From positions 14,865 to 78,864 of the forward strand of contig JAAZNU010000036.1 of the NCBI GenBank assembly GCA_012798135.1: a stretch of DNA of 64,000 bases, written 5' to 3'. The translations under genes were made by a program, and so were the position numbers. This document shows, one piece after another, positions 54,912 to 60,281 of this stretch. This DNA is from Veillonellaceae bacterium. GTDB lineage: Bacteria > Bacillota_C > Negativicutes > UBA1444. Position 1 is the stretch's first letter. Every line of letters begins with the position of its first letter. The notes beneath the pieces were generated by a model, which made no database searches, was not told the DNA's origin, and worked only from the letters and a program-made list of their open reading frames with translations.

Positions 54912-55421
54912 TCAGGGTGTAGATGGAGGTGCCGGTGGTGGATTTTGCCCTTCGGGTCCGGGAGCGCGACCAGGTCCGTGGGGCGGTCGCATTTCCTGCG
55001 CCAAAGCTTGGGCTTGTTCTTTCGACAGGCCGGTGCCTTCCATCAGATCTTTGACCAAATCCGGACGTTTTTTGCATCGCTGGATGCATTGCTGCTCCAT
55101 GTAGGAATCGCGTTCCCCTGGGGCCATGCTTTTGACCTTGTCCCATTCGGCTCTGCGCTCAGCGTCTTTTTGCTGGAAGAACAGCATGACGCGGTGGGCC
55201 TGGTCGGTATCGATGACTTTCTTTTCAACCAGTTTGGTTACCATCTCGTGTAGACGTTTGGCGGGATCTCCCGGCTGTGGCGGACGATCGGCCTGGGCGG
55301 CGTCAGGGCCGGAATCCGGTGCTGGCGGCGCTGCCTGAACCAAACCGACGACGGTGAGGGATGCGGCCAGGCTGCCGAGGAGCAGGGCACTCAAAATTCG
55401 CTTGTGCCATTTGATTTTCAT
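54912..55421 (-). CDS. Spy/CpxP-like exported envelope-stress protein
   Basis: A 169-aa exported protein with a signal peptide (KRILSALLLGSLAASLTVVGLVQA) and a mature helical part rich in charged residues, flanked by Pro-rich segments. Length, helical content and the segment GLSKEQAQALAQEM recall the LTxxQ helices of Spy/CpxP periplasmic chaperones, but similarity is weak. Cys residues in QQCIQRCKK could pair. GGGAGAG sets the ATG at 55421; TTG 55439 is upstream of that site. Its promoter region has the same direct repeat as macA, and the two-component genes lie directly upstream on the same strand. Confidence 0.72.
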   Translation of the reverse strand: MKIKWHKRILSALLLGSLAASLTVVGLVQAAPPAPDSGPDAAQADRPPQPGDPAKRLHEMVTKLVEKKVIDTDQAHRVMLFFQQKDAERRAEWDKVKSMAPGERDSYMEQQCIQRCKKRPDLVKDLMEGTGLSKEQAQALAQEMRPPHGPGRAPGPEGQNPPPAPPSTP

Positions 55422-55462: not shown

Positions 55463-55513
55463 AGTATGAAGGAAGATTGTTACAATATTATTACGATATG
55501 ATCGCGATTATAT
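55463..55513 (-). promoter_or_regulatory. Response-regulator box and promoter of the spy-like gene
   Basis: Reading the minus strand: CGTAATAAT (55495-55487) and TGTAACAAT (55484-55476) form direct repeats 11 bp apart; the second starts 16 bases before a -10 CATACT (55468-55463). The same layout occurs before macA. An 18-bp near-palindrome around ATCGCGAT (55496-55513) lies just upstream. Confidence 0.75.
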
Positions 55514-55514
55514 T

Positions 55515-57008
55515 TCAGTTTGGTTCCAGTTTCGGCAAATCGACATCGAACCAGAAACTAACGCCATCGGGTTGGTTTTCAACCCCGTAATGGTTGCCCT
55601 GCAATTCCTGAATGGCCCGGACGATCGACAGCCCCAGGCCATAACCGCCGCGTTCGCGCGTGCGGGCTTTATCCACTTTGTAAAAACTGGTCCAGATTTT
55701 AGCGAGGCTTTCCTCCGGGATCGGCTGTCCCGAGTTGGCGACAGAGATGCGGACATGGTCCGCATTGGTGGCGGGCCCGACCGACAGGCGAATCTTTCTT
55801 TCCCCGCCGGTGTGGTCAATGGCGTTGTTCAGATAATTGGTAAGAATCTGTTCGATCCGTAGTCGGTCGGCGTATACAGTGCAGTCCGGCTGATTCTGAC
55901 GCTCCAGGGAAATGGCTTTTTCGGCCAAAACCGGCTGGAATTTTTGGACCATCTCATCCAACAACGCCGACAGTGAAAATGTCGTTGGATTTAGCTGAAA
56001 CACGCCCGCTTCCATTTGGGACAGATTGAGCAGGTCGCGGACGAGGCGGTCCATTTTTTCCGCTTCGTCCATGATGACGCTGCAATAGTATTCGCGATCC
56101 GCGCTTTCCTGCACGACATTTTCCTTTAATCCTTCCGCATAGCCGAGGATGAGGGAAAGCGGTGTTTTTAGTTCATGCGAAACGTTGGAGACAAATTCCT
56201 TGCGCATCTTGTCCAGTTTGCGTTCCTTTTCCACATCCGCCAGCAATTGCCGGTTTTTTTCACTTAATTCGGCGATGGCGGAATCCAACTGGTTGGACAA
56301 ATGATTGATGCTTTTGCCTAACTCGCCGATTTCGTCCGCTTGGTCAATCGCGGCTTTCTGGGAAAAGTCCAACAATGACATGCGTTGGGCCAGACGATTG
56401 AGGTTGACGATCGGACCGGTGAAGCGTTTCGCAAAGAAGAACGCCCAGCAGCAACCGGCCACAATCGACAGCAAGCCGGTAAAGACCATGAACTGGGCAG
56501 CGACGGCGGCGCTTTCCGAAATCGGCGATAACGCCTGACGGATATGCAACATGTCGCCGTTATTCAGTTGCCGCTCGATGACCATGAAGTCGATCTTGAT
56601 ATCGGCGTCCCGCAGCATTTCCAGGTGGGTCCGGGCATCGATCGCTTTCCGGCTCTTGGTTACGTGGGGCGGCGGCGGCGGCAGCTGATAGGCAGGGCCG
56701 CCGTTCCGGGAATGGGGCTGGTGAATGAACGGGCCGAAGGAAGTATACCGGACCTGGCCGGTGTGATCGGTGATGACAATGCCGGCGCCCAAGGCATTGG
56801 CTGCTCGTTTCAGCTCCACGGAAATATCACCGGGGTTCCCCCGGTAGATTCCGTCAATATCGACACCGGCGGCGATCAGGGTATCTTCTTTTTGCCGCAG
56901 GTAATAACTCTCTAGGCCCAGCCGGGTCAGACCCAGTGACAGCAGCACGAAAAAAAGCAACAGGCCGCTGATGGCTAAAAACAGTCGGGTCCGAACGGAA
57001 GTTTTCAT
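55515..57008 (-). CDS. Sensor histidine kinase (HAMP-HisKA)
   Basis: A 497-aa membrane sensor. A transmembrane helix at about 8-29 leads to an extracytoplasmic domain (30-170) with an unusual Pro-rich loop (QLPPPPPHV), a second helix at about 171-193, a HAMP linker, HisKA with phospho-acceptor His278 (VSNVSHELKTPLS), and an HATPase with NYLNNAIDHT and GYGLGLSIV. It is encoded immediately after its response regulator, with a four-base overlap. The spy-like gene downstream and macA upstream share an operator-like repeat, so this pair likely monitors the envelope. Confidence 0.95.
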   Translation of the reverse strand: MKTSVRTRLFLAISGLLLFFVLLSLGLTRLGLESYYLRQKEDTLIAAGVDIDGIYRGNPGDISVELKRAANALGAGIVITDHTGQVRYTSFGPFIHQPHSRNGGPAYQLPPPPPHVTKSRKAIDARTHLEMLRDADIKIDFMVIERQLNNGDMLHIRQALSPISESAAVAAQFMVFTGLLSIVAGCCWAFFFAKRFTGPIVNLNRLAQRMSLLDFSQKAAIDQADEIGELGKSINHLSNQLDSAIAELSEKNRQLLADVEKERKLDKMRKEFVSNVSHELKTPLSLILGYAEGLKENVVQESADREYYCSVIMDEAEKMDRLVRDLLNLSQMEAGVFQLNPTTFSLSALLDEMVQKFQPVLAEKAISLERQNQPDCTVYADRLRIEQILTNYLNNAIDHTGGERKIRLSVGPATNADHVRISVANSGQPIPEESLAKIWTSFYKVDKARTRERGGYGLGLSIVRAIQELQGNHYGVENQPDGVSFWFDVDLPKLEPN

Positions 57009-57682
57009 TTATCCCCCTCAAACCGGTAGCCATAGCCCCGGATGGTTTGCACCAGTGCACTCTTGTCGCCCAGTTTGGCCCGGAGCCGGTTGATGTGGGT
57101 GTCGACCGTGCGCAGGTCGCCATAGTAATCATAATTCCAGACCTGATTCAAGATTTGTTCGCGACTGAGCGCCTTTCCCCGGTTTTCCGCCAGGAAGGCC
57201 AGCAGTTCATATTCCTTCGGGCTCAGGTCCACGGGCGAGGAATCGATGAAAACCTGGCGGGAAGCACTGTCGATCTTCAGACCGGCACTGTTTTCCATAA
57301 CAGTACCATTGTTTCCGTCCGCCCGTCGGAACAGGGCGTTGACCCGGGCGGTCAATATTTTGGGACTAAACGGCTTGGTGACATACTCGTCGGCCCCCAG
57401 CTCGAACGCAAACAGCTGGTCGACCTCCTCACCCCGGGCGGTGAGCATGATCACCGGCAGCGAGCCCTTTTTGCGGATTTCGCGGCAGACGCTGAGTCCG
57501 TCCTGTTCCGGCATCATGACATCCAGAATGGCCAGGTCCACCTTTTCATTTTCCAGTAGCGTCAGTGCTCTTGCGCCATTGTCAGCTTCCAGCACCGTAT
57601 ACCCTTCTCGCGACAGGAAATCGGCGACCAGTTTTCGGATGCGAAGTTCATCGTCGGCAATCAGGATTGTTTTATGTTGCAT
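57005..57682 (-). CDS. OmpR-family response regulator
   Basis: A 225-aa regulator with receiver domain (acidic pair IADDE, phospho-acceptor Asp54 in AILDVMMPEQDGL, Lys in VTKPFSPKIL) and an OmpR/PhoB winged helix (LSPKEYELLAFLAENRG, LRTVDTHINRLRAKL, VQTIRGYGYRFE). The ATG at 57682 follows AGAGGTGG; the frame extends upstream but is not conserved. Regulators of this type bind direct repeats with 11-bp phasing, exactly what is seen before macA and the spy-like gene. It has its own promoter and is divergent from macA. Confidence 0.95.
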   Translation of the reverse strand: MQHKTILIADDELRIRKLVADFLSREGYTVLEADNGARALTLLENEKVDLAILDVMMPEQDGLSVCREIRKKGSLPVIMLTARGEEVDQLFAFELGADEYVTKPFSPKILTARVNALFRRADGNNGTVMENSAGLKIDSASRQVFIDSSPVDLSPKEYELLAFLAENRGKALSREQILNQVWNYDYYGDLRTVDTHINRLRAKLGDKSALVQTIRGYGYRFEGDK

Positions 57683-57719
57683 AATCCACCTCTGAGTGAG
57701 AAAAATTAAAACCAACTTT

Positions 57720-57748
57720 AGCATAAAGAGCTTTACCGGGGAAGTCAA
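57720..57748 (-). promoter_or_regulatory. Promoter of the regulator-kinase pair
   Basis: On the minus strand: -35 TTGACT (57748-57743), 17-base spacer, -10 TATGCT (57725-57720), about 40 bases before the regulator start. Confidence 0.7.
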
Positions 57749-57785
57749 TCGAAAAGAAGGATTATTTAGCATGTGTATATAAAGC

Positions 57786-57818
57786 TGTAACAAAGTTGTA
57801 ACAATTCAACAGCATAAT
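57786..57818 (+). promoter_or_regulatory. Response-regulator box and promoter of macA
   Basis: Direct repeats TGTAACAA at 57786-57793 and 57797-57804 are 11 bp apart; the second begins 16 bases before a -10 CATAAT (57813-57818), and no normal -35 is present. This is the layout of an OmpR/PhoB-type activated promoter. Confidence 0.78.
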
Positions 57819-57878: not shown

Positions 57879-58961
57879 ATGAATACGATTCGGCAAAGTT
57901 TGATGAAACACAAGCTGGCGGTTTTTCTGACGTTGTTATTGTTGGTCGGCGGGGCAGGCGGCGCTTATTACTATCTGCAAAGCAAGACGGCACCGGCCAG
58001 TCAGGAGGTAACGGTCGCGGCGGGGCGGGGCGACGTGTACGCGACGGTTTCCGCCACGGGCACGATTTCCGCCGTGAATACCGTGGAAATCAGCTCCCGG
58101 GTCACCGGCCTGATCCAGGAAATGCGCGTGAAAGAGAATGATGCGGTGAAAGCCGGCCAGGTATTGTTGGTGCTCGACGATACCACGTTGCGGACGCAGG
58201 TGGCCCAATTCAAGGCGCAGCTCGACAATTACGCGACGATTTACCAGCGTAGCCAACGTCTGACCAAGGCCGGCGGCCAGTCCATCCAACAGCTCGACAC
58301 CGACCGGACCAACTGGGAGGTCGCCCAGCAAACCTATAACAATTATGTGTCGCAGCTTCAATACTATGTGATCACTTCCCCGATCGACGGAGTGGTCGCC
58401 GGCAAGCCGACCCCGGCCGGACAGACGGTGGCGCAGGGGATTTCCAGCCCGCAGGTGATCATGAATGTGGCGGATATGTCGAAGATGCAGATCAAAGTGT
58501 TGGTGGACGAGACCGACATCGGACGAATCCAGTTGGGACAGACTGTGACGTTCACGGTGGACGCCTATCCGGACAAAACGTTTACCGGCAAAGTGGCGCT
58601 GATTTCCCGCAGTGCGACGACCTCGTCGAATGTGGTGTATTATCCGGTCTATGTGGACGTGGACTCCGCCGAGGGGTTGTTGTTCCCGACTATGACGGCG
58701 CGAACGACGATCCAGGTCGGCGAAAGCAAAAACGTGCTGGTGGTGCCGGCTGCCGCCGTGAAAGAGGAAAAAGGCCAGAAATATGTTCAGGTCATGACGA
58801 ATGGCAAGGCCCAGAGTGTTACCGTCGAAACAGGGCTGAGCGACGACGAGAACGTCGAGATCAAAAACGGTCTGACTGCTGGCGACCAAGTGATCCTGCC
58901 GGTGGCCAAACCGACTGCGACCACGAATCAGCAGAATCAGGGGCCGCCGCCACGCTTGTAA
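57879..58961 (+). CDS. macA: MacA-like efflux periplasmic adaptor
   Basis: Membrane-fusion protein of the HlyD/RND-adaptor family, 360 aa. One N-terminal anchor helix (LAVFLTLLLLVGGAGGAYYYL), then a split lipoyl-like domain (ATVSATGTISAVNTVEISSRVTG and YYVITSPIDGVVAGKP), a short helical hairpin between them, a beta-barrel domain (ADMSKMQIKVLVDETDIGRI) and a C-terminal beta domain. The hairpin is short, as expected for Gram-positive-type or MacA-type adaptors. It sits behind the response-regulator box, about 100 bases before its permease partner. Confidence 0.92.
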   Translation: MNTIRQSLMKHKLAVFLTLLLLVGGAGGAYYYLQSKTAPASQEVTVAAGRGDVYATVSATGTISAVNTVEISSRVTGLIQEMRVKENDAVKAGQVLLVLDDTTLRTQVAQFKAQLDNYATIYQRSQRLTKAGGQSIQQLDTDRTNWEVAQQTYNNYVSQLQYYVITSPIDGVVAGKPTPAGQTVAQGISSPQVIMNVADMSKMQIKVLVDETDIGRIQLGQTVTFTVDAYPDKTFTGKVALISRSATTSSNVVYYPVYVDVDSAEGLLFPTMTARTTIQVGESKNVLVVPAAAVKEEKGQKYVQVMTNGKAQSVTVETGLSDDENVEIKNGLTAGDQVILPVAKPTATTNQQNQGPPPRL

Positions 58962-59063
58962 ACCGGGTGGATGGGGCAGAAAACATAAGCGTAACGCGGA
59001 AACAACGAACGAAAACAACGAACGAAAACCCGACAGTCAACTGGATAGTAAGGGGGTGGAGCC

Positions 59064-60281
59064 ATGTTCCGCGAAAGCATCCTGATTGCTTTGGAAGGTC
59101 TGAAATCCAATAAATTGCGCTCCATTCTCACCATGCTGGGGATTATCATCGGCGTCGGTGCGGTGATTGCCATGGTGTCGATCGGACTGGGCGTGCAGCA
59201 GAAGGTGCAGAACTCCATTGCCAGCCTGGGCAGCAACCTACTGATTGTCATGCCGGGCTCCAATGCGCCGCCGGGTACGGTCCGGCTAGCGGCGGGATCG
59301 AACATCACCCTGACGAATCAGGATGCCAAGGCGATTTCCAAGCAGGTGGGCGGGATCAGTTATGTATTGCCGGCAGTCAGTTCCCAGTATCAGGTGATCT
59401 ATGGCAACCAGAACTGGAAGACCAGTGTACAGGGAACGACGCCGGATTTTTTGACGGTCCGGAATTACGGCATCTCTGCCGGCTCGTTTTTTTCCCACAG
59501 TGACGATAACTCCCGGGCCCGGGTGGCGGTGCTGGGCCAGACCGTGGCCGCCAACCTGTTTGGCGCAGCCAGCCCGGTCGGCAAAACCATCCGGATCAAT
59601 CAGGCGCCATTTCGTGTGGTCGGCGTGCTCGGGGCCAAAGGACAGTCGTCGATGGGACAGGACCAGGATGACTTGGTATTGGTCCCGCTGGCGACGGCCC
59701 AGGACCGTCTGATGGGAATTACTTACCTGAATAATGTCAGCATCCAGGCGAAAAACGCCGAGGTCATCAACAAAGTGCAGGAAGACGTCACGACCCTGCT
59801 GCGGAGTCGGCATCGTCTGGCGGCGGGCGTGGAGAACGATTTTACAGTGCGCAATATGACGGCCCTGATGGCGACAATGACCGAAACGACCGGGACCATT
59901 ACCGTACTGTTGGGCAATATTGCGGCGATCTCCTTGCTGGTGGGTGGGATCGGCATCATGAACATCATGCTGGTTTCCGTCACGGAACGGACCCGCGAAA
60001 TCGGCATCCGCAAAGCCTTGGGCGCAACCTTCCGGAATGTGCTGATGCAATTCATCATTGAAGCGGTGGCCATCAGCGTGACCGGCGGTTTGTTCGGCAT
60101 CGCCGTCGGCATCGTCGGCGCCCGGGTCATCTCCTGGATCGCGGGCTGGAATACGATTGTGGCCTGGTGGGCCATCGTGGGCGCGTTCGGGGTGTCAGTA
60201 CTCATCGGTCTGTTCTTCGGCGTATACCCGGCCCGCAAAGCAGCGTTGCTCGATCCGATTGATGCGCTGCGATATGAATAA
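59064..60281 (+). CDS. MacB-type ABC transporter permease (no ATPase domain)
   Basis: A 405-aa membrane protein with the MacB layout: first transmembrane helix in NKLRSILTMLGIIIGVGAVIAM, a large extracytoplasmic domain (about 55-275), and three C-terminal FtsX helices (around ISLLVGGIGIMNIML, AVAISVTGGLFGIAVGIVG and VGAFGVSVLIGLFFGVYPA). The motif VTERTREIGIRKALGA, which contacts the ATPase, is intact. MacB normally carries an N-terminal ATPase domain, or a separate ATPase gene lies between adaptor and permease; neither is present here. It must use an ATPase encoded elsewhere or shared. Probable cargo: peptides or antibiotics, by family. Confidence 0.92.
   Translation: MFRESILIALEGLKSNKLRSILTMLGIIIGVGAVIAMVSIGLGVQQKVQNSIASLGSNLLIVMPGSNAPPGTVRLAAGSNITLTNQDAKAISKQVGGISYVLPAVSSQYQVIYGNQNWKTSVQGTTPDFLTVRNYGISAGSFFSHSDDNSRARVAVLGQTVAANLFGAASPVGKTIRINQAPFRVVGVLGAKGQSSMGQDQDDLVLVPLATAQDRLMGITYLNNVSIQAKNAEVINKVQEDVTTLLRSRHRLAAGVENDFTVRNMTALMATMTETTGTITVLLGNIAAISLLVGGIGIMNIMLVSVTERTREIGIRKALGATFRNVLMQFIIEAVAISVTGGLFGIAVGIVGARVISWIAGWNTIVAWWAIVGAFGVSVLIGLFFGVYPARKAALLDPIDALRYE

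What the first reader, a model, noticed from the sequence alone, without database searches (positions are those of the whole stretch)
55463..57818. A two-promoter regulon: identical 11-bp-phased repeat plus CATAMT -10 before spy-like gene and macA
TGTAACAA(T) repeats at 11-bp phasing occur before both genes (57786-57804 plus strand; 55495-55476 minus strand). In both, the second repeat starts exactly 16 bases before a CATAAT/CATACT -10, and no normal -35 exists. The genes between encode an OmpR-type regulator and kinase. Together they look like a self-contained envelope-stress circuit (sensor, regulator, periplasmic chaperone-like protein, export pump) in a Firmicute, analogous to Cpx/Spy in enterobacteria.
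Basis: partly seen in the sequence, partly recalled or inferred. Interest (0 to 1): 0.72.

Follow-up and report, generated by a model that had tools for sequence, protein, structure and literature searches.

The report
Conserved two-promoter switch in diderm Firmicutes
A sensor-regulator gene pair in a Firmicute whose closest relatives have an outer membrane sits between two promoters carrying the same control sequence, and that sequence has been kept in dozens of related species, which marks it as a real local switch for a pump and a small secreted protein.

Summary
TGTAACAA repeats at 11-bp phase lie before macA (57786-57802 +) and before a small secreted-protein gene (55495-55479 -), each with a CATAAT/CATACT -10 exactly 16 nt from the start of the second repeat; in the second promoter the first copy has two mismatches. 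Comparison shows the pair is real: in 38 Negativicutes loci around orthologues of the neighbouring kinase, period 11 / distance 16 occurs 53 times, against at most 10 in any of 104 other combinations. The element precedes the secreted-protein gene in 16 of 16 loci that have it, and is there in 2 of 22 without; 26 of 27 macA-adjacent loci score 9/12 or better. Most likely the adjacent OmpR/PhoB-type regulator binds the repeats in place of a -35. Corrections: the host looks like a Negativicute; the 'Spy-like' protein has no Spy match and relates to DUF2680 proteins; the macAB operon here lacks its ATPase gene; the box matches the WalR consensus, so other regulators could share it; macA copies away from the regulator lack it (0 of 5). 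The envelope-stress signal is inference. A new member of a known kind.

The parts
57786..57802 (+). box before macA: TGTAAC-N5-TGTAAC, 11-bp phase
   Evidence: conserved before macA in relatives
57813..57818 (+). -10 element CATAAT of the macA promoter, 16 nt from the start of the second half-site
   Evidence: spacing conserved
55479..55495 (-). box before the secreted-protein gene: CGTAAT-N5-TGTAAC
   Evidence: conserved
55463..55468 (-). -10 element CATACT of the secreted-protein promoter
   Evidence: conserved
57005..57682 (-). OmpR/PhoB-type response regulator (Response_reg + Trans_reg_C), 225 aa
   Evidence: recognition helix RTVDTHINRLR
55515..57008 (-). sensor histidine kinase (HAMP-HisKA-HATPase_c), 497 aa; extracytoplasmic region predicted alpha/beta
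   Evidence: model mean pLDDT 76.1, pTM 0.44
57720..57748 (-). possible ordinary promoter of the regulator-kinase operon: TTGACT-N17-TATGCT
   Evidence: one site, shuffles 0.7, so weak by itself; a TTGACN -35 found upstream of the regulator in 18 of 36 relatives
57879..58961 (+). macA: periplasmic adaptor (HlyD/RND_mfp), 360 aa
59064..60281 (+). macB permease part only (MacB_PCD + FtsX), 405 aa; no ATPase gene between it and macA

Best explanation
This is a local two-component regulon. The kinase (55515-57008) senses an extracytoplasmic condition and phosphorylates the adjacent OmpR/PhoB-type regulator (57005-57682). The phosphorylated regulator binds head-to-tail to TGTAAC-N5-TGTAAC, two half-sites one helical turn apart, at two promoters that have a -10 (CATAAT/CATACT) but no -35. 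Bound there it takes the place of the -35 and recruits RNA polymerase, switching on the macA-macB operon and the small helical secreted protein. The regulator-kinase operon itself is probably read from an ordinary -35/-10 promoter. Shown by comparison: the promoter architecture and its conservation. Inferred: that this regulator is the one that binds, activation through contact with sigma, and that the signal is envelope stress.
For: In 38 Negativicutes loci, period 11 / distance 16 occurs 53 times against at most 10 in each of 104 other cells; in 44 loci of the earlier set (43 relatives plus the window, mostly more distant) the same cell has 11, two of them the window's, and no other exceeds 4. 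Mean information is 1.23 bits per column in the 34-nt element against 0.29 and 0.23 in the 40 nt either side (40 sequences after collapsing at 80%, the window's two included). Box before the secreted-protein gene: 16 of 16 loci with the gene there; 2 of 22 without it (L177 and L175, both before a second two-component gene). Box on the macA side: 26 of 27 macA-adjacent loci at 9/12 or better (the other, L175, 8/12), and none in L155-L159, which have kinase and secreted-protein gene but no macA there. Genome-wide in 150 Negativicutes: 49 sites with up to 1 mismatch against 1 for the reversed pattern; 30 of 49, and 16 of 17 exact ones, lie within 6 kb of the kinase gene; sites in 23 of 42 genomes with the kinase and 6 of 108 without. 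In G470, where the secreted-protein gene sits about 566 kb from the regulator, it still has the box with the same spacing. The recognition helix RTVDTHI[NT]R[LV]R is found in 32 of 36 Negativicutes regulators listed (three have V for I, one gene is broken). In the earlier set a box of 10/12 or better occurs with xRLR helices in 7 of 21 loci and with other helices in 0 of 21; at 9/12 or better 10 of 21 and 2 of 21 (a split chosen after seeing the data).
Against: No binding or expression data. The box equals the WalR consensus, other OmpR-type regulators are present in all 12 genomes checked, and the looser pattern precedes unrelated genes in the phylum. Five macA orthologues that sit away from the regulator (L231-L234, L237; 65-68% identity) have no box of 10/12 or better (the best before an operon is 9/12 upstream of the TolC-like gene in L270). 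Of six secreted-protein homologues away from the kinase, only the G470 one has the box; those in G453, G460, G445, G428 and G530 score 7-8/12. Four macA-less loci of a more distant clade (L178-L181) carry box-like sequence on the macA side. Twelve of the 42 one-mismatch or exact sites in kinase-bearing genomes are elsewhere in the genome, and apart from G470 none of those read lies before macA or the secreted-protein gene. The half-site reversed (TGTTAC) also fits the WalR consensus, so orientation, and an effect on the regulator gene, are not settled. Sequences are related by descent, so the counts are not independent.
Confidence: 0.8

Rival explanations
1. The boxes are bound by a different OmpR-family regulator, above all a WalR-like one, and the neighbouring regulator controls something else or shares the sites.
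For: The box matches TGTWAH-N5-TGTWAH exactly before macA and with one mismatch before the other gene. YycF-profile matches outside the locus exist in all 12 genomes searched, none over the curated cut-off. The looser pattern also occurs before a two-component operon and, by reading their sequence, before cell-envelope genes elsewhere.
Against: Sites cluster at this locus (30 of 49; 16 of 17 exact), go with presence of the kinase (23 of 42 against 6 of 108) and with the local target gene (16 of 16 against 2 of 22), and keep a locus-specific spacer and CATAMT -10.
Confidence: 0.12
2. The boxes repress rather than activate: the regulator sits over the -35 region and blocks polymerase until the signal arrives.
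For: Position over the -35 region suits repression too; the passages read in PMC4168254 note that sites overlapping promoters can be repressive.
Against: No usable -35 was found under the box (and reading), so basal transcription would be weak without an activator; the fixed 16-nt spacing in dozens of loci fits contact with polymerase better than steric block.
Confidence: 0.07
3. The repeats are chance or a compositional accident in AT-rich intergenic DNA.
For: Single TGTAACAAT copies are not enriched in the window.
Against:: period, spacing and reversed-pattern controls all speak against it.
Confidence: 0.01

Closest known systems
CpxRA regulon of gamma-proteobacteria (spy/cpxP, efflux genes)
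   Same: OmpR-family regulator, GTAAA-N5-GTAAA direct repeat, periplasmic helical proteins and efflux genes among targets (PMC12802237 passages).
   Different: Half-site GTAAC not GTAAA; CpxR (and Legionella-type CpxA) profile scores far below cut-off; secreted protein without a Spy/CpxP profile match; sites concentrated at one locus, where about 100 promoters are reported for E. coli CpxR.
WalRK (YycFG) of Firmicutes
   Same: Box TGTWAH-N5-TGTWAH (PMC9210968 and PMC4168254 passages); Firmicute OmpR-family pair.
   Different: Regulator 204.5 bits against a YycF cut-off of 340, kinase 231.6 against a WalK cut-off of 725; no PAS domain found in the kinase at E <= 0.001; targets are a pump and a secreted helical protein.
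PhoBR / Pho box promoters
   Same: Two 11-nt direct repeat units bound head-to-tail (PMC4415409 passages); the regulator replacing the -35 and contacting sigma, and the like spacing of E. coli pstS, are recalled, not read (paper not held).
   Different: Half-site sequence; no phosphate genes among the five genes of the locus; PhoB 223.1 bits against a cut-off of 296.2.
MacAB-TolC efflux pump
   Same: Adaptor plus MacB-type permease; most relatives have adaptor-ATPase-permease, several with a TolC-like gene.
   Different: ATPase gene absent between the two in the window; permease is a separate protein without the ATPase domain; MacA and MacB equivalog cut-offs not reached.

Membership tests
OmpR/PhoB-family two-component system | Response_reg plus Trans_reg_C regulator next to a HisKA/HATPase_c kinase | tested here: met
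   adjacency seen in nearly all relatives mapped
OmpR/PhoB-family two-component system | phosphotransfer and DNA binding | not testable with these tools
   needs protein work
WalRK | NCBIfam YycF and WalK curated cut-offs | tested here: not met
   204.5 against 340; 231.6 against 725
WalRK | binding box TGTWAH-N5-TGTWAH | tested here: met
   sequence match only: exact before macA, one mismatch before the other gene
PhoBR | NCBIfam PhoB / PhoR cut-offs | tested here: not met
   223.1 against 296.2; 186.6 against 334.2
CpxRA | CpxR equivalog cut-off | tested here: not met
   151 against 341
CpxRA | GTAAA-N5-GTAAA box | tested here: inconclusive
   GTAAC-N6-GTAAC as read from the TGTAAC half-sites, i.e. 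the same 11-bp phase or close to it and one base different per half-site (where N4-8 is also allowed)
Spy/CpxP (LTXXQ, Metal_resist) | profile match | tested here: not met
   no Pfam or NCBIfam hit at E <= 0.001, and neither family among the four Pfam hits at E up to 10; HMMER's filters drop most weaker matches
Spy/CpxP (LTXXQ, Metal_resist) | fold | tested here: inconclusive
DUF2680 (PF10925) | direct profile match | tested here: not met
   no hit for the window protein
DUF2680 (PF10925) | relationship to DUF2680-bearing neighbours of kinase orthologues | tested here: met
   hhalign 99.5%, E 3.3e-22 over 87 columns against an alignment of 9 such neighbours, seven of them scanned and over the cut-off; seven of 10 neighbours scanned exceed it, though these helical repeats also hit unrelated families
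MacAB | adaptor and MacB permease domains | tested here: met
   RND_mfp 195.1 against 94.9; MacB_PCD and FtsX
MacAB | cognate ATPase | tested here: not met
   none between macA and macB; the window's two ABC hits, at 715-2153, are only 35-36% identical to the relatives' ATPase; the rest of the genome is not held

The most novel reading that the evidence does not exclude
Sporomusa-type Negativicutes (diderm Firmicutes) carry a dedicated envelope-stress response that arose independently of Cpx but settled on nearly the same half-site and the same kind of targets: a tripartite pump and a periplasmic helical chaperone or sensor-damper built from 1-3 copies of a DUF2680-like module.
Probability: 0.3. 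Interest if true: 0.68.

Novelty: new member of a known kind. Interest (0 to 1): 0.5.

Why it matters
How Negativicutes, Firmicutes with an outer membrane, watch over that membrane seems little described: four searches of the held papers (no paper, four listed, two listed, 12 listed of 1,031; titles and abstract starts only) showed none on such a system, and most subscription papers are not in that library.

Tried and rejected
Chance repeats: rejected. A marker unique to this regulator: rejected, because the looser pattern precedes, by my reading of the sequences and no family search, acyl-CoA and CoA-transferase genes, M23-type peptidase genes and another two-component operon in the phylum. 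'The box always travels with macA': rejected, 0 of 5 relocated macA copies kept 10/12 or better. Autoregulation through the macA-side box: not supported, since L155-L159, which lack macA, lack it; the reversed half-site is WalR-like, so it is not excluded. Spy membership by sequence or fold: not supported; among the 50 rows shown in each fold comparison no Spy or CpxP entry is listed. PF13801 in 12 relatives matched 2, not at this locus. Viral contigs (0 relatives) and plasmids (2 distant kinases) gave nothing useful. A de novo search for other 11-bp repeats in the earlier loci gave a few variants (TGTTCAC/TGTACAC in L068 and L078, a like one in L067; CTTCAT in L071), not pursued. The kinase's fold search returned mostly kinase cores, a WalK-YycH model first, and says nothing on its sensor. 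In one search the strand of several loci was guessed wrongly; one search repeats it with tblastn and is the one used. In one search the automatic macA-side hit for L150 was a chance 9/12; a 12/12 box lies further out because a 414-aa reading frame interrupts the regulator gene, and that row was corrected by hand. One search missed macA in L173-L175 and the secreted-protein gene in L173 and L174; these were added. Its stretch 3' of the kinase also ended just short of the L175 box listed, which is why 2 of 22 and not 1 of 22 is reported.

Full report
What is there. The window carries, on the minus strand, a response regulator (57005-57682), a histidine kinase (55515-57008) and a small protein with a signal-like N-terminus (54912-55421); on the plus strand, diverging from the regulator, macA (57879-58961) and a MacB-type permease (59064-60281). 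Among the 120 kinase relatives listed (of 7,654), most of those that carry an organism name are Negativicutes such as Sporomusa and Pelosinus, so the host is most probably a diderm Firmicute. No whole genome is held for the window.

The observation. The pair before the secreted-protein gene is CGTAATAA/TGTAACAA, so it is not identical to the TGTAACAA/TGTAACAA pair before macA. At up to 3 mismatches the double repeat occurs only at these two places (plus the reverse of one), against 0.21 expected.

Earlier, mostly distant set. Kinase matches at E <= 1e-80 were found in 39 of 299 genomes of the phylum. In 44 loci around such kinases (38 from these genomes, five from the scan, and the window), a box of 10/12 or better with a good -10 occurs 11 times at period 11 / distance 16, two of them the window's own, and at most 4 times at any of the 104 other settings. 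Examples: L060 before a protein that just reaches the DUF2680 cut-off; L073 before a DUF2680 protein followed by macA-like and macB-like genes; L043 and L049 with three and four half-sites. Most loci of this set have no such box: 7 of 43 relatives have 10/12 or better in the non-coding stretches scanned.

Close relatives. A search of 150 genomes of the class of G385 found the kinase at E <= 1e-80 in 42; 38 loci were fetched. In these loci the 11/16 setting scores 53 and every other setting at most 10. The consensus is tTGTAACAAAAcTGTAACAATnnTCCTtCATAAT, with 1.23 bits per column against 0.29 and 0.23 in the flanks. The second half-site is better kept than the first. Four loci (L165-L168) have a decayed first half-site.

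Presence follows the target gene. With the secreted-protein gene at the locus, 16 of 16 have the box; without it, 2 of 22 (L175 and L177, both before a second two-component gene). With macA at the locus, 26 of 27 have 9/12 or better and the last (L175) has 8/12. In L155-L159, which have the regulator, kinase and secreted-protein gene but no macA there, the macA-side box is absent. Against this, four macA-less loci of a more distant clade (L178-L181) have box-like repeats.

Genome-wide. In 150 Negativicutes, TGTAAC-N5-TGTAAC-N10-CATAMT with up to one mismatch gives 49 sites in 29 genomes, and the reversed pattern 1. Thirty of the 49, and 16 of the 17 exact ones, lie within 6 kb of the kinase; 12 more are elsewhere in kinase-bearing genomes and seven in genomes without it; sites occur in 23 of 42 genomes with the kinase and 6 of 108 without. 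These genomes are related, so the Fisher value overstates. In G470 the secreted-protein gene is about 566 kb away and still has the box, the spacing and the CATAAT. The one exact distal site, in G462, precedes an unrelated small protein. Five relocated macA copies lack a good box, as do five more distant copies of the secreted-protein gene, so membership seems tied to adjacency.

Not unique. A looser pattern (TANNNT as -10) has 41 sites in 29 of 398 genomes of the phylum, with one for the reversed pattern; of the 30 loci read around them, two lie beside orthologues of this kinase, and many others precede unrelated genes. [quoted passage not shown] Regulator and kinase reach no curated cut-off among the 25 best NCBIfam matches listed for each.

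Mechanism. Two half-sites one turn apart are the head-to-tail mode described for this regulator class (Pho box passages of PMC4415409). With the second half-site starting 16 nt before the -10, the box covers the -35 region, and no -35 was found. That a regulator so placed contacts sigma region 4 is recalled from PhoB work, not read here. By contrast the regulator's own gene has TTGACT-N17-TATGCT upstream (by itself no more than chance), and a TTGACN -35 in 18 of 36 relatives.

The small protein. It has a signal-like N-terminus (by eye) and a helical module of about 85 residues, present up to three times in relatives. It has no Spy/LTXXQ match; its profile aligns with the DUF2680-bearing neighbours of clostridial kinase orthologues. 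The name 'Spy-like' should be dropped, though a similar role is possible.

The pump. Between macA and the permease there are only 102 bases here, where 21 of 24 relatives have 704-789 and, in those printed, an ABC-signature gene; L160 and L164 have 29 and 56 bases and no ATPase match, and L170 keeps a fragment. Whether the window's pump works with an ATPase from elsewhere is open.

Verdict. The promoter pair is real and conserved (near certain), control by the adjacent regulator is likely (about 0.8), and the envelope-stress role is a reasonable guess. The kind is known; no description of this member was seen in the papers searched.

Noticed in passing
58962-59063: The MacB ATPase gene expected between macA and macB (gap 704-789 bases in 21 of 24 relatives) is missing here; also absent in L160 and L164 and reduced to a 64-residue match in L170.
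   Followed up: partly
L150:9567-12221 (coordinates as oriented): In G441 the regulator gene is interrupted by a 414-aa reading frame on the other strand, with the macA-side box still intact beyond it.
   Followed up: no
L079, L080, L086, L087, L093, L108: TGTAAC-N5-TGTAAC-N10-TANNNT also precedes genes that read like acyl-CoA, CoA-transferase, dehydrogenase or solute-binding protein genes (by eye): a separate regulon for another regulator, or, in L086 and L087, for an orthologue of this one.
   Followed up: partly
L162, L163, L164, L152:10838, L242, L252: A second box type, like TGTAACAATTNAGTAAC with a TATNAT or TACTAT -10, lies before operons with a more distant (about 40%) macA, several led by a TolC-like gene.
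   Followed up: no
L178, L179, L180: Arrays of four 11-bp-phased half-sites (TGTGAC/TGTAAC/TGTCAC or TGTGAC/TGTAAA) upstream of the regulator in macA-less loci.
   Followed up: no
L153, L155-L159: The secreted protein is built of one, two or three tandem copies of an ~85-residue helical module.
   Followed up: partly
L171, L172, L174, L175, L176, L177: A second OmpR-type regulator or kinase lies close downstream of the kinase gene; in L175 and L177 the box precedes it.
   Followed up: no
56670-56735: The kinase's extracytoplasmic region has a proline-rich loop (PPPPP) kept in the alignment consensus of 91 relatives, next to the least confident part of the model.
   Followed up: no
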